Positions 8,904 to 36,888 of a stretch of DNA of 64,000 bases are shown piece after piece. Within the stretch, counting starts at the first letter, position 1; each line of letters starts with the position of its first letter. A program made the translations under genes and the position numbers. The notes under the pieces were generated by a model that ran no database searches, was not told where the DNA came from, and worked only from the letters and a program-made list of their open reading frames with translations. The stretch is from a virus. Where the stretch lies: the IMG/VR virus record IMGVR_UViG_3300024346_009227, positions 52,975 through 116,974 of that record. One strand, written 5' to 3'.

Positions 8904-11900
8904 CTATGAATTCATTTCATTTTTAAGTTGTTTACCTATCTGTGTAACTATCCATCCTTTTAGTTCTTCTGTCGCTTGTGTTACCGCTGTATATACACCT
9001 TCTGGATTAAAGTCAATATTTAAAGAAGCATTCAAATTGCCCATTACTTCTATATTTATTATTGATGGTATTTTATTAACTTGTGTTTGTAATGCTTCAG
9101 CATAAGCTTTAAATGTATCTATTTGTTCGCCAAAAGGCTTAAGGAATGTAGTTCCTAGTTTGTTTATTGCATCAGCTAATTGTGTAACGGAAGTCATATC
9201 TATTGCTGGAGTTGCGTTTTCTTGCTGATTTGGAACAAATGCCCCTCTTCTAGCATACATAACTCCACCATTAGACATATAACTAGTATTTCCATTTATA
9301 TGTTTTAATAAATTTAAATTTTTAGATGTTGATTCTCTATTTACCACAAACTCTCCTGGTGTGAGCATGGCAGGAACAGTGTCTGTACCTCTTGGTGTGA
9401 ATCCACCATCTGCAAAATAGTTTACCAGACCACCAGAATTATAACCTTTTCTTTTTGACATTTTGTTGGCAGAATCAGCAAAACTTCCAACTCCAGCATT
9501 AAATCTAGACGAAGAAGCTAATATGTTTTGTGATCCTTCCTTATTAGCATTTGCCCCACTCTTAAATGAATCGCCACTTTGAACAAATTTGTTTCCAACT
9601 CCAGATAATTTTCCAGTTAATTCATTTATTCCAGATTCTATTGGATCTACTTTCTTGCCACGAATATTTCCAACACTACCACCAGTTCTAAACCCAGTAA
9701 CTTCTTTGCCACTATTGATTGCATGTAACAGAGAATAATTTTTAGATGAAGCTTGTTTATTTACTACAAACTCACCTGGAGTCAACATAGCTGGAATAGT
9801 ATCTACATTGCCACCAGTACTATATGAACCTAGATCCATTCCAAGAAAACTTAATTTTTGTCTTTGTGGTTGTTGTGGTTGTTCCTGTCTCTTTTTGGCA
9901 AATGCTGCCATTTGACGATAACCACTAGGCATTTGTTCTTGTGGTTGTTGTTGCATCTGTTGCTGTGGAGCTTGATTAAAGAAGCTTTCTGCATAATTAC
10001 TTGATTGAAATGCTGGTTGAGCAACTTGAAGGTTTTGTGGTCGTTGTTGTGCCTGTTGTTGTGGCAACTTTCCTGCAAAATTACTTGGTCTTGGACCTGA
10101 TTGTAATGCTGCTAATGCTGCTTGTTGTTTTTGTTGTTGTGATTGTTGCTGAGGATTCTGATTAACTTGAAGTTGTGATCTAAATCTATTCGCTCTTTGT
10201 CGTTCTATAGCATTTCTTGCTAGTGTTGATCTTTGTTGTCTAGCCCAATCATCTTGAAGTTCTCTTTGTTTTTTTTCTTCCGCTTCTTTTTTAAGTTTCG
10301 CCCTTAAATATTCATCTGTTGCAAATGGGTTTGCTGGTGATAATGTTGTAAGTCCATTTTCCGCATAAATCAAACCACCTAAACTTGCATATGTACTACC
10401 AGATTCTTCTTCTTGTTGTTTTTTTTGTTCTTCTAGATATTCTTTGATTTGTTTTTTAAATTCATCAGAATTACTTTGTATTCCTGATTCATTTGCTTTT
10501 GCTGTTTTTAATGCGTTTACTTCTGCACCAGTAGCAGAAATATTTCCAAAGGGATTGTTGCCACCACGCATTCTAGACTGAACATCTCCAAGCATACCCA
10601 TTGCTGCTGATGTTACGCCTTCGCCACCAGGCTTAGTTGGATCTTGAAAAGATAGTGCTTGTTGAGCAGAAACGCCACCAGACCCAGTAGAAAATCCAGC
10701 TTGCGTATTATCAAAAAGACTACCAGTTCCATCATTAAATCTAGTGTTAGAAAACATTTGGAATGCATTGTTTTCAGCTTGATTTTTTGCTGCTATTCTA
10801 TTAGTTATGTCTGAAGTAGTAGCTTTTCCAATATTGTCAATATATCCTTCTTGATCAACAGTAAGAGATGTTTCTTCTTCACTGCCACTATAAGAACCTA
10901 AATTTGCTCTTCTTTTTAAGTATCCGCCATCATATAAATAACTTACTAATCCACCGCTTGCATATCCAAGTAATTTTTCCGTATTTGACTTAAAAAGATC
11001 TACGCCTTTATGCTGTACTTTTTCTTGAAGATAGTCTTTTCCAACATGTTTTGCTCCATGTAGAGCAGTCTCAAGTGATGGCTTCATTGCAAATTTTGAA
11101 ATCGCAGATATCCCTGCTTTTGCAAGTCCAGTCATCCCCATAGCATTAAAGACCATATCTGTTGCAGCATTATTGCTGTTGTCTTCATTTTGTAAAAATT
11201 GATTCTGTCTACGAGAGAAAGTTTGAGTTGCCCTATTAGAAGTAGATTCTAAATCATCTTTCCTATCTTGCATGTAAGTATATTTATCTTTATTTTTATC
11301 ATCAACTAAATATCTCGAATCTTCTTCGTATTTTTTTTGTCTATTCATTTTTTCATAAAATGCTTTTTTTCTTGCTTGTCCACCATCTTCTAAATAAACT
11401 ATTCCACCAGTAGCTGAATATCCAACATCTTTACCACTATTTATTGCACTTAATAAGTCACCATGTTTAGCAGTAGCAGAGGCATTTATTACAAACTCAC
11501 CTGGCGTAAGCATAGCTGGTACTGTATCTGTACCTTTAGGCTTAAAGAACGAAGGATCAGGATTAGGACTATGGCTAGGAACACCACCAGATGAAAGATA
11601 GCTTACCATTCCACCAGATGACATTTTTCTAGCTTGTCTTTGTCGTTCTATTTGTGCTGCTGCTTCTTCTCTAGTTATTTCACCCCTATTTAATCGACTT
11701 TCAACACTTAGTTCTCCATATTGTCCTTCAAATAATTGTTGCTCTTTGGTTGCTCTAGGAAGTCTAGCTGCAAGAGCACTCTGTTCTTTTTGTTCTTTTA
11801 TAATTGCAGCTTGAAATTCATTTGGTTCACCTTTAACCACATTTTTATTTTCTTCTGGTGCGATAGCTTTTGTTTCACCTTTCATTTGCTTCAATCTATT

Positions 11901-14900
11901 TTTCATTGCCTCTCTAGTTTTAGCATTTTCAATATTTGCAACATCTAAATTTCTTTTATAATCAATTTTTCTTTGTTTTTTACCATCAACATCTTCTTCT
12001 ACAACTACTGCTTTTGATGAAATAGTTGCATATCCTGGAGAATTACTAACAAGATTTAAAAAATCTTCTGTCGTAAAAAGACCTGGACCGTCTGCTGGAA
12101 ATGTAAAAGAGCTATTAGGACTTCCTAATGTTGGTCTATCTCCAGCTAATTGTTTTAATCCATCATTTGTATATGCTTGGTCTGCAAGTTCATTTCCATT
12201 AATGCTTGGAGCTACCGCAGCAAATTTTGCTAATGCAGCCATAGGATTTGAAAATGCAGTAGTAATTACATCAGTAGCTGCACTAAGTGTAGAAGAAAGA
12301 CTTTTATAAGGAGCAGCTATTCTCAATGCGGTATTTTTGGCAGACATAGAAACTTGACCTTTTCCAGTTGCTGCCTTTATAGTTGCATAAGCACCATCTT
12401 CACCTTCTGCAAAATCAATTCCAGAGAATGGTCTAACAATTTTTTGTGCTTTTCCTTCTTGTTTTTCGGAAAGCTTATCTAATAGATTAAAGTCTTTATT
12501 TCTTCCAATAGCACCTTCTAAGCTCTTTCTGCTTATACCACCAACATTTGCTGCTGCTGCATTAAGAACGCTCAACGCATTTATTTTTCCTTCTTCTATC
12601 GCCCTTACAACTAAAGGTATAGCATCTGGTCCAGCTTGTTTTACTTTTGCATCAACAAAACCCTTAGTGTCTTTTATGTTTGAGTATTGATCAATAAAGT
12701 CAAGAAGACCCTTACCACTTATTGCTAAAGATCTTGTGCTTGCCTGTTGTTTAAAGAAAGAACCAACAATTTCTTTTTGGAATGGAAGTATAAGTTTAGG
12801 ATTATCAAAGTCTTCTTTTGCCAAACTTCCTTTTTGTCCACTGTATAAATTATTGTATTCTTTTAAGCCTAAAGGTATTAATTGATTTGGATCTTTACCA
12901 ATTTCAGCAAATTCTTTTTTGTTTAATTCTTCGCCTTGATTTTTAGCAAAAATACCTTTTAGCTTTACCATTTTGCCAAGTATAGCACTAGCTTGCACTT
13001 CTCTTCTTAAACCTATTTGTGCTAATCTTCCTGCATCGCCCTGTCTCTTTAAGAAAAGCTCGTCTTCTTTTCCCATATCTGTAGCGACAAACTTCTCTCC
13101 AGTTCCTTCTTTTATTTGAGTAAGATAAGCCTTAGAGTCAACATAGCTCTTATCTATTTCTGGTCTATTTTGACCATAAGCATTTCTTAACTTTTCATTA
13201 GATGTTAATCCAATTTGGTTATAGCTTGTTCTTCTTAGCTTTAATATTTCTAATTCTGCTTTTTTCTTAGATTCTAATTCTTTATTCCCTCTTGCTGCAA
13301 GAACCTCATTCTCTGCCATTCTTATCTGCGTATCTATGGGCGTTGTGCCTTCTTCGTTTGCAATGTTGGCAACTATATTTTCTTGTTTCTTTTCTGAAAC
13401 AATGTCTTTCTTTTGTGCTTTTAAATTTGCTATTGTTGCAATATATTGTGGTATTTTAGCATCTATATCAGCATCTATACCTTTATTAGATTCAGCACCA
13501 ATATTTTTAAAGTAATCTGGATTTATTTGAAATTGATCTAAACTTTCTATTTTTTCTGGTATGTTATATTTTTTATTCCAATCAATTATTTTCTTTTCTT
13601 TTAAATAATTTTCTATTAATTCTTTTCTTGTTGGTATTTTCTTTTTTGATTCTTCTTCTAAAAGATTTACATCGGTGTCGGTATGTTTATCCCCATAATT
13701 CTTAATGCCTTTCCATTTTTCTCCACCGCTTTTCCAAGCAAGAGCTTTTTGTTTTTCTGGACCATTCCAAAAATAAGTATCATAAAAATCACCTTGTGAT
13801 CCACTAAAAGCATTTGATTTTTGTGCATCTCCATTGTGAAAAGTTGTAAATAAACCGCCCCTTACATTTTTTGAAAGCTTTGGATAATCATCTTCCTTAA
13901 TTGAATTTGTAGTTAAATCAGAAAAGTGATCTATAAAAGTTCCAGTAATCCTAGCATCTTTATATGCTCGATGTCCTCTTAGATAATTATCTAAATCAAA
14001 TACTCTTGCAACCTTTCTTTGTAATGGTCTAATAAGGCCAAATGCAGAAGTAACTTGTTGAAGTCCAGCACCAATCGTTCTACGCCATGTTGTATCAGAT
14101 GTAGCATCATTATCAAATTTTGCTTTTGTATGATCATCAACTGCATCTGGCCCATAATTTAACATTAAAGGTATAAGTTTTTCTTTAACTTTTTTTGCTT
14201 TATCTTTTTCTAAGTTTTCTGTAGATAAGCCTCCTTTATCACTAATTTCTTTTTTAATGCTTTCATATTCTTTGTTAAGTGTTGTTTTTGCTTCTTGTGA
14301 CGAACCTTCTTTTATTTGAATTTGTTTAAAGTTTGAAAAAATATTTCCAAAATCTTGAAGTGCTTCAAATCCACCATTTTCTTCAATTGTTTTTTTAACA
14401 TTAGGATTTTGAGAAAGTTGTCCACTAGATAAAGACGAAATAACTTCAGATAATATAGACAGAGATGTTTTTTCTCTATCTTCTGGTTTTACTATTGCAG
14501 AAGGAACATTGCTTAATGATGATTTTACAAGTGAGTCGTATTTTCCTTTTATGTTGCTTTTAATTGCTGCTGTTTTTTGTTCATTCGTTGGTCCTACTTG
14601 ATTCCATATATTCATCACTTCTTCTGATGCTTTTATTCTTTTATCTAATACTTCTCCACCTTCTGCTAAATATGATGTTTTTCCACTATTGATAGACTTT
14701 AACAAAGGCAAGTTTTGTTGTGCTGCACTTCTATTTACTACAAATTCTCCTGGTGTTAGCATTGCTGGAACAGTATCAGTTCCTCTTGGAGAAAATGCTT
14801 GACCGCCAATTGCAAATCCAATTGCTTGTGCAGGATTAACATTGGCGTTAACTGGAGCAATACCTTGTTGTTGTGCTGCTAATCCACTAATAGATGCAGA

Positions 14901-17900
14901 CAATCTATTAATATTAGCTGTAGCAGCATCTGCTGCTGCTGTAAGTTTTACTCCAATTCCTTGATTTAATTCACTAACTGCTGTAAGACTAGATTCAAAT
15001 TTTTCTGCATTTATTCCTTGGTCCTCTGCTTTATTTGCAATTTTAACCCCAAGAGAATTTGATCCTCCAAGTTCTTGTTCGGATTTACTTACTTTTTCTC
15101 TTGCATCTTTATTTGTTTGTTGCGTAACATTTTGTACGGCTTTTGTTATTGCATCTTGTATATTTCCACCTTCTGAAACTGTAGCTATTGCTTCTGATTG
15201 AACAGATTTGCTTTCTTTTCCTGATAATCCTATTTTTGATAATATTTCATTTAATGTATCTGATTTTGCAGCAATTTCTTTTGCTGCTTCTGGACCTTGT
15301 TTATTAGAAAATGAACTTCCTATTGATTTTTTAAATTCATCACCCCTTAAAGATTCTCCAACATTTGAATATTTTTTATCTGCTTCTTTTTTTTCTTCTC
15401 TTGCTTTTATTAAACTTGATATTTTTCCTTTGTTTGCTGTAACATCTTTTAGGTTTTCATCAGTTACTCCAGCTTCTCTAAGAAAACCACTTTTTTCTTG
15501 AACATCTTTTATTCTTGCAGACTTTTGAACTTCCCTATTTTTTTCATCTTGAACTTGACTCTTTTCCATGCCAGCAATAAATTTATCTAGGTTTGAATAA
15601 AATGTAGTGTTCTGTTTTGTCAACTGAGAAAAATAATCAGTCTGTAAACTTCTTTGATTTCCAATTAACTCTTGATTTGCTTTTACTTGTTCGTCATATA
15701 CTTTAGCTAATTTTCCAACCAACATATCTTCTTCTGGTTTCTTTTTTCCTAAACCAGTAGTATTACGCACAATATTGTCCGCAATATCTTTTCCAACTGG
15801 ACCAAAACTATCTAAAAATGCAAAAAGTGCCTTGTTTTGTTCAGAACTAAAATTACTTACATTTCCACCTTGAGCTTGTGCTTGTTTAAGTAATCCTTGT
15901 CCTTGAACTCTATCTCTTAATATTTTTTGTCTTTCTTTTGGATCTGCCGTTAAAAACTCTCTTCCTCTTTGAGTTTCATTATCTCTTTCTTGTCTTACTT
16001 GACCAAGCTTGCCTTCCAAAATAGCAAGATTGTTTGATTGATCTGCCAAGTTCTTTAATGACTCTTGCAAATTTGAAGCTTCTGATTTTAATTTAACTAA
16101 CTCAGATGCTGCACCTCTAAATGCAGCCCCACCACCTTCTGCACCAGAAGCATTCTGTACTTTTGGTTCTAACTCCCTAATTCTTTCTTGTGTTCTTTTT
16201 AGATTATCTCCGATTACTCTAGAGTCCTGTGCTTCTGCTCCTTTAGTTCCAGTAAGCCTTTCTTGATTTGTTCTAAAGCCCTGCATTTGTCTATCTACTG
16301 AAATCAAGTTCCCTGCTTGTGATGGCAAACCAGCATTTGTAGCAACAGTCTCTGCTGTAAACTTATCTCTCTGTAGTTTTGCACCTTCTAAGTTTTTAAA
16401 AGATTCGCCAATTTGTTTTTGTCTTTGAGCTAAATTTTCTAAACCACTAATATATTGATTACTTGCATTTTCTAATCTTTGACTTATATCTTTAGCTGCA
16501 TTTAAAAATGGGTCTTTTATATTACCAAGTAGTTTTTCTGCAACCTTAGATACATCGCCACCAGCTTCAGCAAGCAGCTTCGTGTATTCTTGTCCAGATA
16601 CATTTCCAGCAACAGAACTAACAACTCTTTCTGCTCCAGCCCCACTAATACCTTGAGCACTTAAAGCTTCTCTTAAACCAGAGGCTATTTGTATGGCTAT
16701 GTCCTGACCACCAACAGGATCTTCTATTGCACCAGCAAGTAATGACGGCAATGCTTGTGAGGCTGCATTAATTGCATTTCCTTGAGTCTTAAATTCATTG
16801 CCATAAGTTCCAAGTGAATCAGAAAGTTTAGAAACGGCAGAATTAAAAGAATTAAAGTCTGGAGTTGATTTTTGATCAAACTGATTAGAAATTCCAGTTA
16901 CTTTTGTTGATCCAATACCGCCACTAAAAAATGACTCATTTGTGCTTAACCTATTAGAGAAACTTTCTACCGAATTAGCAGCAGCAACAACTGCTTCTGA
17001 TAATAATGCCATAGAATTTATAGATCTTTGATTTACAGTTACTGCTTCTTTTTGAGTTTTTTCTAATTGTGCAGCTTTAAAAGAATCTTTCATTACTTTT
17101 ACAATTTCTTTTTTAACATCATCAAAGCTTACATTTCTTGCATTAGCAATTTTTTGTATTTGTGCATTATTAAATCCACCACCGCCACTAGTTAATTTGG
17201 TATCTAATGATGCTGCAAAATCTTTATAGTCTAATGTTCCAGCATTTCCACCAGCCTGTCTTACTGCACTAGAACCAAGTTGTTCGGCTTGTTTATTTAA
17301 AATATTCGTAAGTGGAACTATTTGTGCAGCACCAGCTTCTTTTTGACTTTTTGAATTTAATTCGTTGAATTTTTTAACATCAAATCCACCAAAACCGCCA
17401 CCAGTAATTCCAGATATTAGTCTGTCAAAACCATTTTTCTCTCCACCAGCTTCAACGAATGCTTTTCCAGCGTTTGCTTCAGTAATAATTTTTTGATTTG
17501 CTGCAATTGATTCGGCAATAGTATCATCAAAAGTTCTTAACCCAGTATTTAATTTATCAAATGTTCCTTGCAATCCTGTTAGTGCAGCACCTAACTTTAC
17601 TTCTCTTATTTGTGCCTCTGCTTCTTTAGTGCCATCAGCATAACCTTTTATTAATCCAACAAATGCACCTAAAGCACCGCCTACAAGAGTACCTACTGGC
17701 CCAAGTGCCGAAAAAGCGGTAGCAGTAGTAGCAGCATATGTTCCAGCTTTTTCAATAGCACCAGCAAATTGAAGTGTGGACCTATAAGCTTCTTGCTGTG
17801 CTTTATCTTCAACAACTACTCCTTGTTCATTTGCTTTTGCAAGAGAAGAAACTTCTGGTGCTCCTGCTCTCATTCCAGAAGCAAGTAAAGATCCACCAAC

Positions 17901-20900
17901 AGCAGCAGTTGTTATTCTATTGGCGTAACCAGATGCTCTATCTTGTTTAAACTGTCTTTCTCCCTCTGCACCAGCTTCAAAATCAGTTCGTTTTGAACCT
18001 ACAAGTCTTTGCCCAAAATCTTTTACCTTACCTTGGAATGTTAAATCGCCACTTTCTTTATAATCTCCACCTTTAATTAATTTTGATCCTAAAGACTTAT
18101 CTCCTGTTAGTTCTCCTTGTTTATTAAAAACTGCCCCTCTTTTTCCTTGAGCAAACTGCTTAGTGTATTGATCAGTCATAGACTGGATTTGCAATTCGCT
18201 AACAGGTTTTACTTCTTTTTGTGCTTTTGCTCTAAGTTGTTTTTCTGTTGCTGCTCTATATTCATTAACTATTCCACTTCTTATATCTTCTCTTTCGCTT
18301 TTTCTAGGGGCTTTACCATCATTTTGTTTAGCGTATTCTTTTTCTCTTTGTTTTGAAATTTGTTTTATTGAATCAGGTGTAGTTATTGGCTTTGTTTGTC
18401 CAATTGGCCTTCCTTTTTCATTTACAATCTCACCCTTTGCATTTACTTGGAATGATCTAGTGGCTTTTTCTCCTGATGCTTTTGCTGCTGCTTTTGCCGT
18501 TTCGGCTTTTTGTATATTTGCTTCTGCATCTTTTATAGATTGTTCTGTTTTTAAAATTTCATTTTGAACATTTAATTGTTTAGTTCCAACAGCAGTAATG
18601 CTATTTTCTATTGCCACTCTATTTTGAGCATTTGTATTTCTATCATTAAGAAGTTTTTGATAATCTTGATTTAACTTTAAAATTTGTGCATCTTCTTTTG
18701 ATGTGTCTACTGCCGTTCTTGCCTTAGTATCTCTTGCGTTTGTTGCTGTAGTCAAAGCACTTTCAGCTTTTGTTATTTTTGCATCTATTGCTTTTGATTT
18801 TAATGGTTTTTCAGCTTCCAATTTTTCTGCTTTCGCCTTATCGATTTCTTCCTGTTCTTTTTTTGTGTTAGGAACTTTGTTGTCTCTTGCAGTAGTAGCT
18901 TGCGTAAGAGCATCTTCTGCTCTCATTATTTTTGTGTCTATGTTTTTTGTTTTTAATGGCTTACTAGCTTTTGCTAATTCGTCTTTTGCTTTATCAATTT
19001 CTTCTTGTTCTTTTTTTGTGTTAGGTCCAGCAGCAGTTTTATCTGCCATCTGTTTTGTCAATACATCTCTTTGTCTTTTTGCTTCTGCTATTTGTGCATT
19101 CACAACTCTAACTGATTCACCAGCATCTAATTTAGATTTTTTTCTTGCTTCTAGAACAGAAATTCTTCCGGTAATATTTCCAACTTTTGCAGTTTCACTT
19201 TTTAAGTTTACTGGCTGTTGAGATTTTAATCTTTTTGCTTCTTCTGCTTCTGCAAGTCTTTGACTCGCTGCATCAATTTTTGCTTGCTTCGCTTCTTGCA
19301 TGTCCTTCTTTTTTTGCTTTAAATCATCGACTTTTTGTTTTGTCGAAACAACTCTTTTATTTTCTTGAGTTAAATCTACTGGTTGAGCTTCTTTTGTGAT
19401 TTTTGCTTGTTCTGCTGCTGCAATTCTTTGATCTGCTGCATCTATTTTTGCTTGTCTAGCCTCTTCCATGTCTTTCTTTTTATCTTTTAATTCATTTACT
19501 TTTGTTTGTGCAGATCCAACCCTTGTATTTTCTTTAGTTAAATCTTGTCCTGCTGCTGCTTTTGCATCTCTAGCAGCTACTATTGCTGTACCCTTTGCCC
19601 TTAATTCTAATTCAGCAGTATATGAAGCATCTGCTGCATCTGTATTCTTCTGAAGTGCTTCCGCTAAACTAGTTGCTTCTTTACCTAAAGTAGATAGTGT
19701 TTTACCAAAACCCTTTAGTTCTGTATTAAAAACACCAATATTTGATTTTTCTGCCGATATGTCTTGATCTGCTCTAGCAACATTTCCAATTGCTTGATTT
19801 GATGTTTGATTTTGAACTTTTATTTCACTTACAATTCTTGTGGCTTCTGCTTTTGCATCTTTTTTTGATATTTCTGGATCTGACTCCATTATTTGATCAA
19901 CTAATGTTAAAAGTATTTTCTTTAAATTGTTTGGGCTATTTAAAAATGTATCACTAACTATACTATTACCAACTTCACCACCTTTTTTAAATTTTGCAAA
20001 ACTATTCATTTGATGAAGTTTATTAGCACCAATTTTCTTTGCTTCGCTAGGGCTATATACATATTCACCTGGCGTGAGTAATGCAGGAACTTTACCACCA
20101 GATGCAAATTTGTGAGCATTAGCTAAATTATCAATGCCTATGCTATTAACTGAAGACTTTTTAATTACAAAAGAACCTTCGTCTAAATCCATTGGAACTG
20201 TGTCAGAATTGCCAGTTCCTGGTACTAATCCACCAGAAGCAAAACCCCTAGCTTTTTTTCTTTCTTCCATCATTTCTTTTGTGATTGCTACTGATTTTCC
20301 TAAAGTTGGATCTAATGCTAATGCAGGAAGTGGCTTGTATATATCTTCACTATATTTTTTAGATTCTTTGGTCTTTTTAGATGGTTTCCTTACCATTATT
20401 GGTGGGGCATCTCCTTTGCCTATGCTTTTACTAAATTTTCTTTCACGACTACGAGATTCCCTATTTGTCTCTTCTATTGATGCCTTTTTTATACCAAAAA
20501 TATCATTTCTTTTTTGTTCGAGATATTCGCCCCAAGATCTTTCTGGTGCAATTCTCCGAATATTTGTATTTATTGGTGTGATACCATCATTCATTAAAGA
20601 CAATTTTCTTAGTGCTTCCTCTTTATCTCTAGCGGGAATACTTCCTTTTTTACCCTGTTCGTCTTGATAAGAAAATCTAGCCAAACCTTTATTTTTTTCA
20701 TCTTCTGATTTTCTTGATTTTTCATACATCATACCGCCAACTGCTCCAGCACCAAATCCTAAAGTGCCACCAATAAATGCCCCCGGAATACCACCAAGAA
20801 GAGCACCACCAACAGCACCAGTAATACCTCCAGCAATAGCACCAGCGGGTCCAGCCAAAATTCCTTTAGCATCTCTTTCTTGTCTTTCTGATTCTTCTAT

Positions 20901-23729
20901 TGCAAGACTGTTACCTCTTTTTGGAGGTCTAGATGTATTAATGTCACCTGTGTCTGTCTCATTCATATTCCAATATCTTCTAAGTTCTTTCGCTCTTTCT
21001 TTTGCTTGATCTCTTCTGTCTTGTCTTTCTTGTAGTTTTTGTTGTGAGGCTTTTTTGGCAGCAACAAGCTTAAGAGATATAACAAAGTATCCCATCTGCC
21101 TAATCTTTTGACGCATTTCATCTTCTGTTGCAGCATCAACACTATCACGAACAATATTCCCTTTTGTATCTTTAGCAACAAACTTACCACTAGCAAACTT
21201 TTGTCTAACTACATCTCCACCATAAGCAAATTTTCTTTTTGCTTTAGCAGCTTTCTGTCTATCGGTATATGCAGAAGAAGCATTCATTGTTTTAGATAGT
21301 TCTTCTTTTTCTCTAAATTGACTAGCATTTCTAACTGCTTCAAAACTATCAAATCTATTTGGTCTGGTGAATGTTTCTGGATTTGTACCTTTCCATTGAC
21401 TTCTTGCTTCGTCTTTAGTTGGAGCATCGCCAAAGATAGACCTAAACATTTGGTCTTCTGACTGAGCATTATTTTTTGGCGGTGGTGGAGGTGAATTTGC
21501 AGTCTTTGGTCCACTTTGTGATCTTGCTTTTTTAAGATCACTCCGATCTTTTAAACGCTGAAAGGCAGCATTTACTTGTGCCATATTTTCGGGCAGACCG
21601 CCCCTATCTGAATGATGAATTAAAGCTGCTCTTCTAAATGCACTTGTTAGTTCTGGACCTTGCGGTATATAACCTTTAGTAAATCCAAGTATTTCTTCTG
21701 GATAAAGACCTTTAGGAAATGGTTTTGATCTTGCTTCATTTCCTTCCATGAATCTTTGACGATAGATTGGTCCACCAAACGCTTTTTTAGTAGGATCTTT
21801 TCCACCTATAGCTGTATTTATATCTTCAGCCTGACCTTCAGTTGCTCTTTTTCCTGTTCCATTATATGCTATCGCTACTTTAGATCTTATTAGCAGACCA
21901 GCTAATTTATTATCAGTAAACATTGGTCTACCATATTTATCTTGACCTTTACCTTTAAATAAATTAGTTAGTTTATCTGAATCTTGATAATTAGAAGCAG
22001 CGTATTTTTCAGTTATAGCCTTTGCCTGTTGACCTTTTTCTCTTTCTTTTTTTGTTCCTTTATTTAATTCATAAGCATCAACACCTTCTAGCCTTGTGCT
22101 TGTTCTAAATCTTGCTCTTGTTGGAACAACGCCTACATTTAAACTATCTCCATCAACTGTTTTGTTGTATTTTACACTGCTAACATCTCCACCCTTTAAA
22201 TACTTGCTTCTTCTGACTTGATTTCTAGGTACAACCATCTCACCTGGCTCAAGCAAAGCTGGCACTTTATCTCCAGTGCCACTTCCTGGCACTATACCCC
22301 CTGTTCTCATCCTAAGAAAACCGCCATCTGCTTTTTTATTTGTTCTTGCAGACGAACTATCTGCACCAGCACCCTTTACAAAACCTGTGGCAAAAGAGCC
22401 AATACTTTGACCAATTTTTACAGCAGCGAGAGCAGTAAATAATGGGAGTAAACCTTTAAGTGAATTGATTAATGACAAGACAGAAGTGGCAGCACCAATG
22501 AATGTATCAGCCAAACTTCTAAAGCCAGGGCTATTAACAATACTTCTACCAACCTCAAAAAAGCTTTCCTTCAACTTCTGTAGTTTTACAGCAAGAGCAT
22601 CCTGTGCCTGACCAGCATTAACAGCCAAAGACACACTACCAGCTTGAGCTACCCCTAATGCCTTCTGTGCAGTAGCAAATTCTTGAATAAGTGGGATAAC
22701 CTTACTGATCTGCCTATAACCACCTAATTGCTCAACAATGGCACTAAATCGGGGGTCTGTTGATCTTAATTCTGAAAGTCCAGAGGACAACCTTTTAATT
22801 GCTTCATATGGTCCAACAAACTGCTGTTCTAAGCCAACATCTCCTAAAGCCCTAGCTTCATCTGCGGTATATCTAAGATTTATACCAATTTCTTTTAGAG
22901 CATTAGCCGTATCATTTCTTTGTATTCGTGTAAATATAGTTCTTAAGCCAGTACCAATACTTTCGGCACTTTCTCTTGTCGTTTGTCGTACTGATGTAAA
23001 TAAGGCTATAAGCTCATTTAAATTACCACCAGCAGCTTTAAAAGCACCCCCTGTCTTTCTAATCGCCTCAATAATATCTGATGCTTCAACAGCAAACTCA
23101 CCCGCTACAGCATTAACAGAACCTAAAGCTGCACCAAGATCTCTTGCTTCAACTTTAAACTGCTTCATAATAGCAATAGCACCTTCAGTCGTATCTTTGA
23201 GGTTATCAAAGTTTGGTGCTAAAGCAGCTTGTGCCATTGCTTCTAAGGCATCTTTAGTTTCAGACAGAGTTAAGTTAGCTTGTTTTAAAACTACTGCTAC
23301 GCCAATTAAATCTTTACTGGAAACACCTAAATTTTTAGATAAGTTTGTTACTTGATCACCTACAGCAGCAACATCTTGTACTGTATCTGAAGAAACTTGT
23401 CTTAACCTAACCATTTCTCTATCAAAATCTACGGCAGCAGAAACAGCTTGTTTCATTGTGTTAGTAAAAGCAATGATTGAACCAGCAGTAACAGCGAATG
23501 CAGCAAATCTTTTAGCAGCAAAGCCAGCTTGCCTACCAAAATTTTCTATAGAATTAGTAACTTCAGAAAGCTGAGTTTTTAATGGAGTAAGAGAAGCAAA
23601 TGTTGCAGAATTTGTTCCTATTTTTAAACTGTTCACACTTCCTAATGTGCTATTTATTTGATTGGCTGCTGCTTTTAAAGCACCACTATTTACAGCAACA
23701 TTCAAATTGGCAGTCAAATTAAAAGCCAT
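8904..23729 (-). CDS. Giant tail tape measure protein with embedded nuclease-like and DnaJ-like domains
   Basis: This 4941-aa protein sets tail length and occupies the tail lumen before DNA ejection. Residues ~60-440 match the TP901-type tape measure core (…SAAVDFDREMVRLRQVS…). Seven copies of a VPAMLTPGEFVVN-type motif, common in tape measure proteins, lie near residues 475, 1164, 1209, 2976, 4062, 4637 and 4775. At ~512-625 is a staphylococcal-nuclease-like domain (VDGDSLNV; RLEGVDAYE; DKYGRPMF). At ~672-728 is a J-like domain (YPEEILGF; HHSDRGG; AQVNAAFQRLKD) with HSD in place of HPD. Two short modules at ~848-886 and ~1016-1060 resemble the N-terminus of GspF/PilC. Gly-zipper stretches at ~953-996 and ~1988-2031 could insert in membrane. 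Long coiled coils (~1280-1700) and a Gln-rich region (~4510-4625) follow. The ATG has TTGAGGTATAAAA upstream. The tape measure role is firm; the embedded domains are by motif only. Confidence 0.93.
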   Translation of the reverse strand: MAFNLTANLNVAVNSGALKAAANQINSTLGSVNSLKIGTNSATFASLTPLKTQLSEVTNSIENFGRQAGFAAKRFAAFAVTAGSIIAFTNTMKQAVSAAVDFDREMVRLRQVSSDTVQDVAAVGDQVTNLSKNLGVSSKDLIGVAVVLKQANLTLSETKDALEAMAQAALAPNFDNLKDTTEGAIAIMKQFKVEARDLGAALGSVNAVAGEFAVEASDIIEAIRKTGGAFKAAGGNLNELIALFTSVRQTTRESAESIGTGLRTIFTRIQRNDTANALKEIGINLRYTADEARALGDVGLEQQFVGPYEAIKRLSSGLSELRSTDPRFSAIVEQLGGYRQISKVIPLIQEFATAQKALGVAQAGSVSLAVNAGQAQDALAVKLQKLKESFFEVGRSIVNSPGFRSLADTFIGAATSVLSLINSLKGLLPLFTALAAVKIGQSIGSFATGFVKGAGADSSSARTNKKADGGFLRMRTGGIVPGSGTGDKVPALLEPGEMVVPRNQVRRSKYLKGGDVSSVKYNKTVDGDSLNVGVVPTRARFRTSTRLEGVDAYELNKGTKKEREKGQQAKAITEKYAASNYQDSDKLTNLFKGKGQDKYGRPMFTDNKLAGLLIRSKVAIAYNGTGKRATEGQAEDINTAIGGKDPTKKAFGGPIYRQRFMEGNEARSKPFPKGLYPEEILGFTKGYIPQGPELTSAFRRAALIHHSDRGGLPENMAQVNAAFQRLKDRSDLKKARSQSGPKTANSPPPPPKNNAQSEDQMFRSIFGDAPTKDEARSQWKGTNPETFTRPNRFDSFEAVRNASQFREKEELSKTMNASSAYTDRQKAAKAKRKFAYGGDVVRQKFASGKFVAKDTKGNIVRDSVDAATEDEMRQKIRQMGYFVISLKLVAAKKASQQKLQERQDRRDQAKERAKELRRYWNMNETDTGDINTSRPPKRGNSLAIEESERQERDAKGILAGPAGAIAGGITGAVGGALLGGIPGAFIGGTLGFGAGAVGGMMYEKSRKSEDEKNKGLARFSYQDEQGKKGSIPARDKEEALRKLSLMNDGITPINTNIRRIAPERSWGEYLEQKRNDIFGIKKASIEETNRESRSRERKFSKSIGKGDAPPIMVRKPSKKTKESKKYSEDIYKPLPALALDPTLGKSVAITKEMMEERKKARGFASGGLVPGTGNSDTVPMDLDEGSFVIKKSSVNSIGIDNLANAHKFASGGKVPALLTPGEYVYSPSEAKKIGANKLHQMNSFAKFKKGGEVGNSIVSDTFLNSPNNLKKILLTLVDQIMESDPEISKKDAKAEATRIVSEIKVQNQTSNQAIGNVARADQDISAEKSNIGVFNTELKGFGKTLSTLGKEATSLAEALQKNTDAADASYTAELELRAKGTAIVAARDAKAAAGQDLTKENTRVGSAQTKVNELKDKKKDMEEARQAKIDAADQRIAAAEQAKITKEAQPVDLTQENKRVVSTKQKVDDLKQKKKDMQEAKQAKIDAASQRLAEAEEAKRLKSQQPVNLKSETAKVGNITGRISVLEARKKSKLDAGESVRVVNAQIAEAKRQRDVLTKQMADKTAAGPNTKKEQEEIDKAKDELAKASKPLKTKNIDTKIMRAEDALTQATTARDNKVPNTKKEQEEIDKAKAEKLEAEKPLKSKAIDAKITKAESALTTATNARDTKARTAVDTSKEDAQILKLNQDYQKLLNDRNTNAQNRVAIENSITAVGTKQLNVQNEILKTEQSIKDAEANIQKAETAKAAAKASGEKATRSFQVNAKGEIVNEKGRPIGQTKPITTPDSIKQISKQREKEYAKQNDGKAPRKSEREDIRSGIVNEYRAATEKQLRAKAQKEVKPVSELQIQSMTDQYTKQFAQGKRGAVFNKQGELTGDKSLGSKLIKGGDYKESGDLTFQGKVKDFGQRLVGSKRTDFEAGAEGERQFKQDRASGYANRITTAAVGGSLLASGMRAGAPEVSSLAKANEQGVVVEDKAQQEAYRSTLQFAGAIEKAGTYAATTATAFSALGPVGTLVGGALGAFVGLIKGYADGTKEAEAQIREVKLGAALTGLQGTFDKLNTGLRTFDDTIAESIAANQKIITEANAGKAFVEAGGEKNGFDRLISGITGGGFGGFDVKKFNELNSKSQKEAGAAQIVPLTNILNKQAEQLGSSAVRQAGGNAGTLDYKDFAASLDTKLTSGGGGFNNAQIQKIANARNVSFDDVKKEIVKVMKDSFKAAQLEKTQKEAVTVNQRSINSMALLSEAVVAAANSVESFSNRLSTNESFFSGGIGSTKVTGISNQFDQKSTPDFNSFNSAVSKLSDSLGTYGNEFKTQGNAINAASQALPSLLAGAIEDPVGGQDIAIQIASGLREALSAQGISGAGAERVVSSVAGNVSGQEYTKLLAEAGGDVSKVAEKLLGNIKDPFLNAAKDISQRLENASNQYISGLENLAQRQKQIGESFKNLEGAKLQRDKFTAETVATNAGLPSQAGNLISVDRQMQGFRTNQERLTGTKGAEAQDSRVIGDNLKRTQERIRELEPKVQNASGAEGGGAAFRGAASELVKLKSEASNLQESLKNLADQSNNLAILEGKLGQVRQERDNETQRGREFLTADPKERQKILRDRVQGQGLLKQAQAQGGNVSNFSSEQNKALFAFLDSFGPVGKDIADNIVRNTTGLGKKKPEEDMLVGKLAKVYDEQVKANQELIGNQRSLQTDYFSQLTKQNTTFYSNLDKFIAGMEKSQVQDEKNREVQKSARIKDVQEKSGFLREAGVTDENLKDVTANKGKISSLIKAREEKKEADKKYSNVGESLRGDEFKKSIGSSFSNKQGPEAAKEIAAKSDTLNEILSKIGLSGKESKSVQSEAIATVSEGGNIQDAITKAVQNVTQQTNKDAREKVSKSEQELGGSNSLGVKIANKAEDQGINAEKFESSLTAVSELNQGIGVKLTAAADAATANINRLSASISGLAAQQQGIAPVNANVNPAQAIGFAIGGQAFSPRGTDTVPAMLTPGEFVVNRSAAQQNLPLLKSINSGKTSYLAEGGEVLDKRIKASEEVMNIWNQVGPTNEQKTAAIKSNIKGKYDSLVKSSLSNVPSAIVKPEDREKTSLSILSEVISSLSSGQLSQNPNVKKTIEENGGFEALQDFGNIFSNFKQIQIKEGSSQEAKTTLNKEYESIKKEISDKGGLSTENLEKDKAKKVKEKLIPLMLNYGPDAVDDHTKAKFDNDATSDTTWRRTIGAGLQQVTSAFGLIRPLQRKVARVFDLDNYLRGHRAYKDARITGTFIDHFSDLTTNSIKEDDYPKLSKNVRGGLFTTFHNGDAQKSNAFSGSQGDFYDTYFWNGPEKQKALAWKSGGEKWKGIKNYGDKHTDTDVNLLEEESKKKIPTRKELIENYLKEKKIIDWNKKYNIPEKIESLDQFQINPDYFKNIGAESNKGIDADIDAKIPQYIATIANLKAQKKDIVSEKKQENIVANIANEEGTTPIDTQIRMAENEVLAARGNKELESKKKAELEILKLRRTSYNQIGLTSNEKLRNAYGQNRPEIDKSYVDSKAYLTQIKEGTGEKFVATDMGKEDELFLKRQGDAGRLAQIGLRREVQASAILGKMVKLKGIFAKNQGEELNKKEFAEIGKDPNQLIPLGLKEYNNLYSGQKGSLAKEDFDNPKLILPFQKEIVGSFFKQQASTRSLAISGKGLLDFIDQYSNIKDTKGFVDAKVKQAGPDAIPLVVRAIEEGKINALSVLNAAAANVGGISRKSLEGAIGRNKDFNLLDKLSEKQEGKAQKIVRPFSGIDFAEGEDGAYATIKAATGKGQVSMSAKNTALRIAAPYKSLSSTLSAATDVITTAFSNPMAALAKFAAVAPSINGNELADQAYTNDGLKQLAGDRPTLGSPNSSFTFPADGPGLFTTEDFLNLVSNSPGYATISSKAVVVEEDVDGKKQRKIDYKRNLDVANIENAKTREAMKNRLKQMKGETKAIAPEENKNVVKGEPNEFQAAIIKEQKEQSALAARLPRATKEQQLFEGQYGELSVESRLNRGEITREEAAAQIERQRQARKMSSGGMVSYLSSGGVPSHSPNPDPSFFKPKGTDTVPAMLTPGEFVINASATAKHGDLLSAINSGKDVGYSATGGIVYLEDGGQARKKAFYEKMNRQKKYEEDSRYLVDDKNKDKYTYMQDRKDDLESTSNRATQTFSRRQNQFLQNEDNSNNAATDMVFNAMGMTGLAKAGISAISKFAMKPSLETALHGAKHVGKDYLQEKVQHKGVDLFKSNTEKLLGYASGGLVSYLYDGGYLKRRANLGSYSGSEEETSLTVDQEGYIDNIGKATTSDITNRIAAKNQAENNAFQMFSNTRFNDGTGSLFDNTQAGFSTGSGGVSAQQALSFQDPTKPGGEGVTSAAMGMLGDVQSRMRGGNNPFGNISATGAEVNALKTAKANESGIQSNSDEFKKQIKEYLEEQKKQQEEESGSTYASLGGLIYAENGLTTLSPANPFATDEYLRAKLKKEAEEKKQRELQDDWARQQRSTLARNAIERQRANRFRSQLQVNQNPQQQSQQQKQQAALAALQSGPRPSNFAGKLPQQQAQQRPQNLQVAQPAFQSSNYAESFFNQAPQQQMQQQPQEQMPSGYRQMAAFAKKRQEQPQQPQRQKLSFLGMDLGSYSTGGNVDTIPAMLTPGEFVVNKQASSKNYSLLHAINSGKEVTGFRTGGSVGNIRGKKVDPIESGINELTGKLSGVGNKFVQSGDSFKSGANANKEGSQNILASSSRFNAGVGSFADSANKMSKRKGYNSGGLVNYFADGGFTPRGTDTVPAMLTPGEFVVNRESTSKNLNLLKHINGNTSYMSNGGVMYARRGAFVPNQQENATPAIDMTSVTQLADAINKLGTTFLKPFGEQIDTFKAYAEALQTQVNKIPSIINIEVMGNLNASLNIDFNPEGVYTAVTQATEELKGWIVTQIGKQLKNEMNS

Positions 23730-23743
23730 TTTTATACCTCAAT

Positions 23744-23793
23744 AAAAAAGGGCAGAGCATAAGCGTAGTTACTTCTACGATTAAACCCTGCCC
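23744..23793 (-). terminator. Terminator-like hairpin between chaperone-like gene and tape measure gene
   Basis: Read leftward, an outer stem GGGCAG/CTGCCC encloses an inner CGTAG/CTACG stem, followed by TTTTTT. This has the form of an intrinsic terminator or attenuator just 15 nt before the tape measure ATG. It probably lowers read-through into the tape measure gene, whose product is needed in only a few copies per virion. Confidence 0.65.
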
Positions 23794-23813
23794 ATCTATG
23801 CGATACTGTCCGT

Positions 23814-24698
23814 TTAGTTCTTGACTTCTTCAGCAGGAACTTTAGCTGCTTCAACAACAATTTCTGGTGCTGCCGTTGTTTTGACAGTCTCAACCTTTTC
23901 TTGGATTGGTTTACCTTCGTCATCAAGGAACGGAGAGAATTCAACAACATAATCTCCTTCCTCATTAACTCGATTACCATGAATATCAATGAGTTCACCA
24001 GCCTCATTAATATACCTACCATCCTTATTGACTAGCCTACCCTCAGAATCAACCCTTCGGCCTGTCTTATCAACTAAATGCAACTCTTCATCCACAAAGT
24101 TATATTTAGCTAAAAACTGGTTCTCAGGGAGCTTCTTTTCATAATCTGGATCAAGATTATAAAGCAACATAGCAAGACTTCCTGCTGCCTGTCCAGTTGC
24201 TGGATCGTCATCTCTATTTAAGTAATCTTCATAATTACTAAAATATGTTTTCCCTGTCTCTGAATACACCGTACATGAACTAACCCAGTAATTGAATTGG
24301 GCATTATCTGCTTGACCTTCAGCAGTATTATTATCTAGGGATGATCGCTCAGAGGTTAAAGCCCTAAGTTCCGCACGATCTTTCCTCATTTCAAGAGCTA
24401 AGTCCTTAGCCTGATTGAGTTTAATACCGCCAGACTTAATCTTTCTTTCTGCCCCATTAATTTTTTCCAATAATTTACGATATTCAGCTTCTTTGTTATC
24501 ATCCCAAAGATTCTGCTCTCGCATAACATTATTGACTTTGCCACGAAGAATTGCACCAGATTCAACAGCATCTCGAAATGCCTTATTGTAAATCTTTTGC
24601 CCTTCTTGCCTCTGTTTAACATTAGGTCGAACAACACAAAGTTCAACTTCTTTGCTATCCAAGGTTACCTTAAACTGCTTCTTATTTGTGACACTCAT
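23814..24698 (-). CDS. Tail assembly chaperone-like protein
   Basis: A 294-aa protein beginning MSVTNKKQFKVTLDSKE, with a very strong site, AAAGGAGGATTAGTT, before its ATG. It lies between the tail tube and the tape measure genes, the usual place of tail assembly chaperones. A central helical part contains QNLWDDNKEAEYRKLL followed by EMRKDRAELRALTSERSSLD, a pattern shared with the 348-aa gene upstream. Residues ~205-255 contain short repeats around 'GRxVNxEGxxI' (VDSEGRLVNKDGRYI, GNRVNEEGDYV). The Glu/Val/Ala-rich tail ends AAKVPAEEVKN. An overlapping frame (23732-24022) could be reached only by a +1 or -2 shift, so a classical -1 G/GT frameshift is not evident. Role inferred from position and helix pattern. 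Confidence 0.55.
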   Translation of the reverse strand: MSVTNKKQFKVTLDSKEVELCVVRPNVKQRQEGQKIYNKAFRDAVESGAILRGKVNNVMREQNLWDDNKEAEYRKLLEKINGAERKIKSGGIKLNQAKDLALEMRKDRAELRALTSERSSLDNNTAEGQADNAQFNYWVSSCTVYSETGKTYFSNYEDYLNRDDDPATGQAAGSLAMLLYNLDPDYEKKLPENQFLAKYNFVDEELHLVDKTGRRVDSEGRLVNKDGRYINEAGELIDIHGNRVNEEGDYVVEFSPFLDDEGKPIQEKVETVKTTAAPEIVVEAAKVPAEEVKN

Positions 24699-29530: not shown

Positions 29531-31330
29531 TTAAAGCTTCTTTAAAATTAAATAATCATCTGAATACTTAAGCAAACTAAGTTTTTCTGATTTTTTATAA
29601 ATATCTGCAATTTCTTGATCTGCATTTACTATGATTAAAAAATCTTCTGGCCTTAAAAAAGTTTCTTGTTTTAACAATGAAAAATCAATAAGTTCTTGAG
29701 ACAAGCCTTTATAGTTAATTAATAATGTTCTAGTATTTTCATCTGGTGCTGCAAAATCATCTTCTTTATCTGTAAGAATAAAGTTTTCATAATTAAAGTT
29801 ATTTATGTATTTTTGAATTGATTCTTTACACATATTTTTGTATTCATCCACTCTAACTACCCCAAGGCCTTTTTGGCAAAGAGCAATGGTAGTTTGTAAT
29901 CCTTCTGAGCTTATATCTAAACAATATGAGTTATTTGCTGCCCAAACAATTTCTCTTACTGCTTCAACTGAAAGTCCACCATCAACATTAGTTAAAGGAA
30001 CATATTGAAATTTTAATCTCATTAATGCTTCTTCAAATGTGTACAAGATAGGAACAATTTTTTCTTTCTGGCATATATAAGAAAATTCAGTTGCTTCTTG
30101 ATAGTCATCTAGTACTTTTTTTGCAAAATCTTTACTTATCATCCATAAAGTTGAATCATCTAATTCATCAATATCAACAATCTTGTAAGATAATTGAGAA
30201 TGTGTTGTTTTCAAGCAGCCTTTATTTATTTGATCAAATATAGTTATTTTTGCCTGATTTGTTTTTATTAGTGGCCAAAAATCAAGCATGAAGTTAATGC
30301 TTTTTTCTAGTCTTAAATTGCCTTTGCAAATTAAAGCGTAATCATATTCTTCTGCAATAAACTTGTGAAGAGTTAACTTTAGATTTGCTCCAAGCATATA
30401 TTCTTTTTCTTTTTCCCATTTCATTTTTTTAAATGATTCTTCAGTAGTATTGCTTTCTCTTCCAATAATATAAGCTTTAATTTTTACATCATTTTTTTGT
30501 GCGGAAATTATAGGTGTTGGATTTCCAACTACTTTAGCAGAATCGGTAATTGATCTAAACAATTCATCTTGACTCACTTTTCCAGTAAAGTAAGTGATTG
30601 CCTCTCTATGATTCCAACCAAGTTCAGTCCAGCCAACTATATAATTGAATATTCTATCTACGATTTGTAGTGGGTAAGGAACGCCTTTTGGTCTGCTAAA
30701 TCTGTGTATCCATTTTAAAAATGGAAGACACAAAGACTTGCCACCATTCTGCCTTACTTTTTCTTGTATGTAACCTTCTTCACCACCAAAACCTCTGAAA
30801 TTTTTGTTGAATGTCGGCCAAACATCTCTTCTCATGCAGAAAACGCCTAGACCCTGCATAGGTATTTCAAATGGTTTTCCTTCGTGTACTCTTTTATCTG
30901 TTTCCCAAGTTCCATACATATGCCCTCTCCAACCTGGCTGAAAATGAGTAGATAAATCTCTTTGGTTGTCATACAAAAGTGGCCCTTGAATTAAATCTTT
31001 TGTGTTTTCATTTTCCCTTAAGTATTTTTTGAGTTCACTAATCACATCTTTTTTGAAAATAACATGACAATCAATGCACATTACAAATTTTCCAGTTGCC
31101 ATTTCAAAAACATGATTTCTAGACTGAGATGTTCCAGCTTTTTCTGGTGCGTGTATATACCTTGCTCCAACATGACCACAAGCATTTTTTGTGTCTTCAC
31201 AAGATTTTGGTTTTGTATCTACTATTAAAAGCTCTACATCTTCTAGATCGTGATAAGCTTTTAGTGCTTGAAGTGTAAAATAAACCCCATCAAAATCATC
31301 GTATGTAGCCATACCAATGGTTAAAAACAT
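29531..31330 (-). CDS. Multidomain glycosyltransferase (GT-A family 2-like N-terminus)
   Basis: A 599-aa protein with AAGGAGGATTT before its ATG. Residues 1-~250 form a GT-A glycosyltransferase: the opening MFLTIGMATYDDFDGVYF, a VELLIVDTKP strand, an acidic CIDCHVIF motif in place of DxD, and FGGEEGYIQEKVR, which resembles the acceptor-site GGED motif. Residues ~260-430 are of unknown type. The C-terminal ~150 residues have a Rossmann-like opening (YCLDISSEGLQTTIALC … VVRVDEY), reminiscent of a class I methyltransferase-type fold, but catalytic residues cannot be confirmed. It is a cytoplasmic sugar transferase embedded among structural genes. Acceptor candidates include the Thr-rich or collagen-like virion proteins; this is inference. 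Confidence 0.75.
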   Translation of the reverse strand: MFLTIGMATYDDFDGVYFTLQALKAYHDLEDVELLIVDTKPKSCEDTKNACGHVGARYIHAPEKAGTSQSRNHVFEMATGKFVMCIDCHVIFKKDVISELKKYLRENENTKDLIQGPLLYDNQRDLSTHFQPGWRGHMYGTWETDKRVHEGKPFEIPMQGLGVFCMRRDVWPTFNKNFRGFGGEEGYIQEKVRQNGGKSLCLPFLKWIHRFSRPKGVPYPLQIVDRIFNYIVGWTELGWNHREAITYFTGKVSQDELFRSITDSAKVVGNPTPIISAQKNDVKIKAYIIGRESNTTEESFKKMKWEKEKEYMLGANLKLTLHKFIAEEYDYALICKGNLRLEKSINFMLDFWPLIKTNQAKITIFDQINKGCLKTTHSQLSYKIVDIDELDDSTLWMISKDFAKKVLDDYQEATEFSYICQKEKIVPILYTFEEALMRLKFQYVPLTNVDGGLSVEAVREIVWAANNSYCLDISSEGLQTTIALCQKGLGVVRVDEYKNMCKESIQKYINNFNYENFILTDKEDDFAAPDENTRTLLINYKGLSQELIDFSLLKQETFLRPEDFLIIVNADQEIADIYKKSEKLSLLKYSDDYLILKKL

Positions 31331-36442: not shown

Positions 36443-36888
36443 TAATAACTTCCCCCCATTACACAAACTTGCAATGCAGTAGTACTAGCAGTAGTAGTAA
36501 CACTAACAGAGGCAAAAAGTTTAAATGTAGATGGCAAAACAAGAGGATTGGCAAAAGTCAATGTGGTAGTAAATCCAGCAACAGTAGTTGAAGGAGTTAC
36601 AGCGGTCACAAGTATTTCTGTAAACAAATAAGCTGTAGTACCATCATGTACCCATATGCCTACGATATTACCAGCGGTAGGTGCTGTAAAAGCGGTAGAG
36701 CAAGCATTGACTTGAATAGCATCAATTCTTAGCCCATTAGTAGAAGTGGGTACAACCTCTACTATATTTGCTGCTGCAAGACTAGCTGTTACTGTTGGAC
36801 CTCTAGTTGTACACGCTGTTTGTGCTGCAAGTGTTTTTGCAACAAAGTATGGAGCTTGAGGAAAAATAGGTGTTGATGTAACTGGCAT
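36442..36888 (-). CDS. Hypothetical structural protein, Ala/Thr-rich
   Basis: A 148-aa protein beginning MPVTSTPIFPQAPYFVAKT, whose ATG overlaps the TAA of the 761-aa collagen-like gene (TAATG). It is rich in Thr, Ala and Val and beta-strand in character (NIVGIWVHDGTTAYLFTEILV; TLTFANPLVLPSTF), resembling small beta-sandwich virion proteins. It has no membrane helix. Position between the collagen-like fibre and the collar genes suggests a fibre-associated or adaptor role. No family recognised. Confidence 0.5.
   Translation of the reverse strand: MPVTSTPIFPQAPYFVAKTLAAQTACTTRGPTVTASLAAANIVEVVPTSTNGLRIDAIQVNACSTAFTAPTAGNIVGIWVHDGTTAYLFTEILVTAVTPSTTVAGFTTTLTFANPLVLPSTFKLFASVSVTTTASTTALQVCVMGGSY

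What the first reader, a model, noticed from the sequence alone, without database searches (positions are those of the whole stretch)
21545..22190. Tape measure protein carries a staphylococcal-nuclease-like domain next to a DnaJ-like domain
Seen: residues ~512-625 contain VDGDSLNV, RLEGVDAYE and DKYGRPMF in order. These align with the DGDT, RLLLVDTPE and DKYGRGLA segments of S. aureus nuclease, keeping the residues equivalent to catalytic R35, E43 and R87 and ligand D40. At ~672-728, YPEEILGF, HHSDRGG and AQVNAAFQRLKD follow the J-domain helix plan, with HSD for HPD. Known: tape measure proteins often carry peptidoglycan hydrolases and are ejected with the genome. Inference: the nuclease might enter the host and attack host DNA, or be blocked inside the tail. 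A J-like domain could recruit a chaperone for tail assembly or for export of the tape measure. I do not know of this pair described in a tape measure protein.
Basis: partly seen in the sequence, partly recalled or inferred. Interest (0 to 1): 0.92.

Follow-up and report, generated by a model that had tools for sequence, protein, structure and literature searches.

The report
Swappable nuclease slot in phage tail-ruler
The giant protein that sets the tail length of this aquatic bacterial virus carries a real DNA/RNA-cutting domain next to a chaperone-recruiting domain, and in related viruses the same spot holds other enzymes instead, which suggests a virus that injects exchangeable weapons with its tail ruler.

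Summary
Window 8904-23729 (-) is a 4941-aa tape measure protein (TMP). Residues ~519-632 are a staphylococcal-nuclease (SNase) domain: the listed PDB matches of its AlphaFold model are all SNase, and residues equivalent to D21, R35, D40, E43 and R87 are kept. Residues ~672-735 are a J domain: near-identical phages carry canonical HPD and one passes the Pfam DnaJ cut-off; this copy reads HSD. The pair is not a fixed unit. The nuclease sits in an exchangeable slot after a conserved 'VPALLEPGEMVVP' motif. A TMP 93% identical before the slot and 83% after it (L002) has a different domain there. Across 67 non-redundant relatives the slot holds SNase (five to six label changes on the tree), PD-(D/E)XK-like domains (13/67 slots against 1/732 control windows), an ADP-ribosyltransferase (above the Pfam cut-off), HAD-like, P-loop and unknown domains. 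No slot-linked immunity gene was seen. Best reading: a virion-delivered, polymorphic effector carried by the TMP and released into the host at DNA entry. Delivery and activity are inferred. This resembles MuF toxins and polyvalent proteins, but the carrier is new to the papers I could search.

The parts
8904..23729 (-). Tape measure protein gene, 4941 aa
   Evidence: one ORF; PhageMin_Tail PF10145 at residues 125-337, E 4.3e-24, and phrog_28 tape measure E 1.8e-23
22719..23357 (-). Conserved TMP core (PF10145), residues 125-337
   Evidence: 95-97% identical in L002-L007 over the searched N-terminal stretch
22221..22295 (-). Conserved motif IVPGSGTGDKVPALLEPGEMVVPRN that borders the slot (residues 479-503); related copies recur further down the TMP
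21789..22136 (-). Exchanged segment, residues 532-647: absent from the near-identical TMP L002, where an unrelated domain stands
   Evidence: blastp blocks W 1-531 (93%) and 648-3647 (83%) against L002; identity profile
21834..22175 (-). SNase domain, residues 519-632 (VDGDS 525, RLEGVDAYE 546, DKYGRP 597)
   Evidence: phrog_452 2.4e-9; AlphaFold + Foldseek PDB 2.9e-6 to SNase; profile A9 against PDB 2.6e-7
21738..21776 (-). Conserved GGPIYRQRFMEGN linker after the slot (residues 652-664)
   Evidence: shared with L001-L003
21525..21716 (-). J domain, residues 672-735, with HSD (706-708) in place of HPD
   Evidence: 49% identical to L001, which hits PF00226 at 29.4 bits; profile A5 hits PDB J proteins (Ydj1 1.9e-4); three helices in a low-confidence model
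20724..20843 (-). Glycine-zipper hydrophobic segment (residues 963-1002), a possible membrane-spanning part
   Evidence: run of overlapping GxxxG repeats, peak hydropathy 1.51; PF13488 13.8 bits, below cut-off

Best explanation
This phage family uses its tape measure protein as a carrier for exchangeable effector domains. The effector is inserted between the conserved N-terminal TMP core and the rest of the ruler, after a Gly-rich VPALLEPGEMVVP motif. In this phage the effector is an SNase-type nuclease. At infection the TMP is expelled from the tail before or with the DNA, and its glycine-zipper segment helps it cross the inner membrane. The nuclease then reaches the cytoplasm and cuts host nucleic acid (DNA and/or RNA), or a defence or competitor nucleic acid. 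The neighbouring J domain recruits host DnaK to pull in, unfold or refold the very long TMP, and is shared by cargoes of different kinds. Shown: domain identities, catalytic residues, clean cassette exchange, repeated appearance of nuclease folds in one slot. Inferred: delivery, activity, target, role of the J domain.
For: SNase identity. Residues equivalent to D21, R35, D40, E43 and R87 invariant in six SNase sequences, five from TMPs and one stand-alone phage enzyme. Cassette exchange between near-identical phages. SNase in the slot in several separate places of the TMP tree: six changes, starred branches forcing five; one copy above the Pfam cut-off (L081, PF00565 29.6 bits against 21). PD-(D/E)XK-like signature in 13/67 slots against 1/732 windows elsewhere in the same TMPs. 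ADP-ribosyltransferase in the slot of L099 (PF03496 1.8e-8, above cut-off), a class known as injected phage effectors (T4 Alt; PMC5512222). During lambda injection the TMP is labelled by a host inner-membrane fusion and met by a host nuclease (PMC13190303). The glycine zipper of the T6SS DNase Tde1, needed for entry into target cells, is homologous to TMP segments (PMC10240207).
Against: No experiment. Virus and relatives are metagenomic contigs and the host is unknown. The PD-(D/E)XK assignment rests on sequence signature and secondary structure: the AlphaFold model is weak (pLDDT 64) and Foldseek was inconclusive; the signature was written after seeing examples. A folded ~115-residue OB-fold inside a tail tube is sterically awkward. 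The J domain here has HSD, which may not activate DnaK. Many slot domains have no known function.
Confidence: 0.6

Rival explanations
1. The slot varies because the exposed TMP segment is under pressure to escape host defences that bind the TMP (SNIPE-like) or to match different inner-membrane partners; the inserted domains serve as spacers or decoys and their chemistry is incidental.
For: SNIPE binds TMPs and TMP changes give escape; a divergent TMP region tracks with use of ManYZ (PMC13190303). The slot is the most variable part of otherwise 83-93% identical TMPs.
Against: Catalytic residues of the SNase are kept in the TMP copies aligned. Enzyme folds, several of them nuclease-like, keep returning to the slot; decoys would not need active sites.
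Confidence: 0.15
2. The nuclease serves the phage's own DNA or its surroundings: processing of a DNA end during packaging or ejection, degradation of extracellular DNA at the cell surface, or removal of competing phage DNA (superinfection exclusion) after synthesis in the infected cell.
For: Nucleases are used by phages in packaging: T4 gp4-type head completion DNase (PMC7824862). An SNase domain occurs in the baseplate hub of BtI1 (PMC2147016) and of Acinetobacter phage ME3.
Against: An ADP-ribosyltransferase, HAD-like and P-loop domains occupy the same slot, which does not fit one DNA-processing step. Position is inside the ruler, not at head or tip.
Confidence: 0.17
3. The inserts are mobile or selfish domain cassettes that spread through TMPs with no benefit to the phage.
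For: Repeated exchange at one site; unrelated cargo.
Against: In-frame fusion without its own gene, start or recognised intein elements; active-site conservation; family-wide retention of a filled slot.
Confidence: 0.06

Closest known systems
MuF polymorphic toxins of temperate phages (PMC5576092)
   Same: a conserved virion protein fused to exchangeable enzymatic domains, more than half of them nucleases, with metallopeptidases and ADP-ribosyltransferases also found
   Different: carrier is a head/packaging protein with a C-terminal toxin, usually followed by a small putative immunity ORF; here the carrier is the tape measure, the slot is internal and no linked small ORF follows the TMP
Polyvalent proteins injected with phage or plasmid DNA (PMC5512222)
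   Same: giant multi-domain proteins with enzymes thought to enter the host with the DNA
   Different: that paper's text does not contain 'tape measure', SNase or DnaJ; here the scaffold is the tail ruler
SNase domain in baseplate hub proteins (BtI1, PMC2147016; Acinetobacter phage ME3 ME3_37)
   Same: SNase fused to a phage tail protein; exchange of domains was noted there
   Different: hub protein, not tape measure; no J domain found; that paper calls the use of the domain obscure
Stand-alone phage SNase endonucleases (phrog_452; cyanophages, L057)
   Same: same family and catalytic residues
   Different: separate small genes, not virion fusions
Tde1 T6SS DNase effector (PMC10240207)
   Same: DNase plus glycine zipper needed for entry, the zipper region being homologous to tape measure proteins
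   Different: bacterial weapon with an immunity protein; Ntox15 fold, not SNase
TMPs with peptidoglycan hydrolases (e.g. SPbeta YomI, among the nearest cultured TMPs)
   Same: TMP with an enzyme domain
   Different: those act on the cell wall (own knowledge); about 27% identity to the window TMP core

Membership tests
Staphylococcal nuclease family (PF00565) | OB-fold of SNase | tested here: met
   AlphaFold pLDDT about 70-92 over the domain; the listed Foldseek PDB hits are all SNase, best 2.9e-6
Staphylococcal nuclease family (PF00565) | catalytic R35, E43, R87 and Ca ligands D21, D40 | tested here: met
   invariant D18, D20, R38, D43, E46, R93 of A9, aligned to PDB 4kd4
Staphylococcal nuclease family (PF00565) | Pfam gathering score | tested here: inconclusive
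   window 14.5 bits against 21; TMP homologue L081 29.6 bits passes
Staphylococcal nuclease family (PF00565) | Ca2+-dependent nuclease activity | not testable with these tools
   needs purified protein
J-domain proteins (PF00226) | sequence match to J-domain helices | tested here: met
   homologous region of L001 29.4 bits against cut-off 27.8; window copy 49% identical to it
J-domain proteins (PF00226) | HPD motif | tested here: not met
   HSD in the window; HPD in L001-L003
J-domain proteins (PF00226) | antiparallel helical hairpin in the model | tested here: inconclusive
   three helices in order but pLDDT about 35-60
Phage tape measure proteins | TMP core, huge length, place in the tail operon | tested here: met
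   PF10145 4e-24; 4941 aa; directly followed by genes conserved in relatives
Polymorphic toxin/effector systems (MuF-like) | conserved carrier with exchangeable enzymatic domains | tested here: met
Polymorphic toxin/effector systems (MuF-like) | adjacent immunity gene | tested here: not met
   TMP followed directly by a conserved tail-region gene in the window and three relatives
PD-(D/E)XK nucleases (alternative slot content) | E...D...(D/E)xK signature | tested here: met
   13/67 slots against 1/732 windows and 2/3350 shuffles; pattern written after seeing examples
PD-(D/E)XK nucleases (alternative slot content) | restriction-endonuclease-like fold | tested here: inconclusive
   model pLDDT 64, no confident Foldseek match

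The most novel reading that the evidence does not exclude
A widespread group of aquatic phages (over 500 IMG/VR stretches with this TMP core) uses the tape measure protein as an injection vehicle for a polymorphic arsenal (nucleases, ADP-ribosyltransferases and others), some with a built-in J domain that harnesses host Hsp70 to pull the effector into the cell.
Probability: 0.45. Interest if true: 0.9.

Novelty: new variant of a known kind. Interest (0 to 1): 0.78.

Why it matters
If right, tape measure proteins are not only rulers and channel-formers but delivery vehicles for interchangeable enzymes. That would give a large set of uncultured phages an early-infection weapon and make TMP cargo a place to look for new effectors and for counter-defence. 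The J domain would be a direct hint that phages can use host Hsp70 during ejection. The idea is testable with one purified domain and one translocation assay.

Tried and rejected
tblastn of the SNase-J region against cultured phages found nothing. Single-sequence Pfam of most slots was negative. PDB search with the 3-row SNase profile A3 gave spurious ubiquitin repeats on top, cured by the 6-row A9. AlphaFold and Foldseek of a PD-(D/E)XK-like slot were inconclusive. A first tree used too many columns because match envelopes had been merged and was rebuilt on the N-terminal core. A looser PD-(D/E)XK pattern matched 74/458 control windows and was dropped. The idea that SNase and J form a functional pair was rejected because the J domain keeps company with other cargoes. 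I saw no sign of an intein or a separate ORF. I found no paper describing this among 10 library searches, but subscription journals and preprints are not held.
Full report
OBSERVATION. The window lies in an IMG/VR virus record of 116,974 bases. ORF 8904-23729 (-) encodes 4941 aa without a stop. It is a tape measure protein: PhageMin_Tail at residues 125-337, E 4.3e-24; phrog_28 E 1.8e-23. Its core is about 27% identical to the TMPs of SPbeta-like phages, the nearest cultured relatives.

SNASE DOMAIN. Residues 519-632 match phrog_452 'endonuclease' (2.4e-9). Pfam SNase is below cut-off for this copy alone (14.5 against 21 bits). An AlphaFold model of residues 512-740 from eight sequences is confident over the SNase part (about 70-92), and the listed PDB matches are all staphylococcal nuclease, best E 2.9e-6. 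Among viral models the best matches are TNase-like nucleases, including a cyanophage endonuclease. Six SNase sequences, five from TMPs and one stand-alone phage enzyme, keep the residues at the positions of D21, R35, D40, E43 and R87. Their profile finds 282 distinct PDB sequences at E<=0.1, best 2.6e-7; the 60 listed are all staphylococcal nuclease.

J DOMAIN. Alone the window copy is weak (PF00226 E 0.055; phrog_13942 3.5e-7). The homologous stretch of three near-identical phages reads HPD, is 48-50% identical to the window, and scores 29.4, 27.2 and 27.7 bits against a cut-off of 27.8. The joint profile finds Ydj1, human Hsp40 and others in the PDB (the two top rows are designed repeat proteins and chance). 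In the window HPD has become HSD. The model of this part is poor (pLDDT about 35-60) but shows three helices in order. The J domain was found only in this phage and three close relatives.

THE SLOT IS EXCHANGEABLE. Compared with L002 (IMGVR 3300005582_000006), TMP residues 1-531 are 93% identical and 648-3647 83% identical, while 532-647 have no counterpart; L002 has an unrelated ~245-aa domain there. L001, L003, L004, L006 and L008 carry yet other domains after the same motif GDKVPALLEPGEMVVP. A profile search from more distant members found 516 IMG/VR stretches with the TMP core, of which 80 were kept. Among these TMPs I find SNase also in L037, L038, L054/L079, L061, L081, L086 and L128/L143, with L081 above the Pfam cut-off (29.6 bits). 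In 67 non-redundant slots a PD-(D/E)XK signature occurs in 13, against 1 of 732 windows elsewhere in the same proteins and 2 of 3350 shuffles. An ADP-ribosyltransferase occurs in L099 (PF03496 1.8e-8, above cut-off). Slots also hold HAD-like 'DFDRT', P-loop 'AGSGKS' and unknown domains. On a tree of the TMP core, SNase needs six changes and well-supported branches force five; TMPs with identical cores carry different slots (L004/L006, L107/L108).

CAVEATS ON THE ALTERNATIVE CARGO. The PD-(D/E)XK signature was written after examples had been seen. The one model folded (L031 slot) has mean pLDDT 64 and no confident structural match. So 'PD-(D/E)XK-like' is a motif-level statement. SNase and ADP-ribosyltransferase are family-level statements. 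In L086 the SNase lies at 826-940, behind another domain, so it is a second position rather than the first slot.

SURROUNDINGS. The TMP gene is directly followed by a conserved tail-region gene in the window and in three relatives, so no slot-linked immunity gene is seen. The TMP has a glycine-zipper hydrophobic segment at 963-1002 and another hydrophobic GxxxG segment at 2005-2033. One distant relative with an SNase slot comes from a MAG labelled Chitinophagia (L061), a weak host clue. The host of the window phage is unknown.

MECHANISM. The best-supported reading is delivery. The TMP leaves the tail with the DNA; in lambda it is labelled from the inner membrane during injection and is met there by the host nuclease SNIPE (PMC13190303). 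The glycine zipper of the T6SS DNase Tde1 is needed to enter target cells and resembles TMP segments (PMC10240207). An enzyme domain in the TMP would thus reach the cytoplasm at the earliest moment, as T4 Alt and the polyvalent proteins are thought to do (PMC5512222). The J domain could recruit DnaK to pull in or refold the very long protein; its presence next to different cargoes fits a role in entry rather than in nuclease chemistry. These steps are inferred. Self-harm may be avoided because the domain is held in the tail, because the nuclease needs Ca2+ or folding after entry, or because phage DNA is protected; none of these was tested.

KNOWN AND NEW. SNase in a phage tail protein has precedents in baseplate hubs (BtI1, PMC2147016; ME3_37). 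Polymorphic effectors on a virion protein are known from MuF (PMC5576092). I found no description of an exchangeable effector slot in a tape measure protein, nor of an SNase-J pair in one, in ten searches of the library, which lacks most subscription papers and all preprints. I therefore file it as a new variant of virion-delivered polymorphic effectors.

Noticed in passing
window TMP residues 489, 1178, 1214, 2987, 4070, 4645, 4785: A Gly-flanked motif like VPAxLxPGEFVV recurs seven times along the TMP and borders variable segments; its role is unknown to me.
   Followed up: partly
L099:7231-7875: ADP-ribosyltransferase (PF03496, 1.8e-8) in the TMP slot of a related phage.
   Followed up: partly
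L004 and L006, TMP segments after RQRFM: Metallopeptidase-like motifs (HELGAH; KHERIH) stand where the J domain is in other members.
   Followed up: no
L116, L121, L123, L129, L153: Recurring HAD-like domain (DFDRT or similar) in or after the TMP slot.
   Followed up: no
L003, L004, L008, L083, L135, L146: Recurring unknown slot domain with 'THFTH ... NMGLDLPANWN'; no Pfam, PHROG or phage match where tested.
   Followed up: partly
window 23732-24022 (-): A 96-aa frame overlapping the gene upstream of the TMP ends just before the TMP start; possible frameshifted tail chaperone (G/GT-like).
   Followed up: no
window 36888-39173 (-): 761-aa protein with many collagen repeats (PF01391, 9e-67), next to a 2845-aa ORF (39184-47721).
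   Followed up: no
window 29531-31330 (-); L050-L052: A glycosyltransferase (PF00535, 5e-12) in the tail-gene region; further proteins in the rest of the genome look glycosyltransferase-like by eye.
   Followed up: no
L157:37999-44988 (Acinetobacter phage ME3, ME3_37): SNase-like stretch at residues 1103-1162 of the 2329-aa baseplate hub protein, a weak sequence match that agrees with the structure hit.
   Followed up: partly
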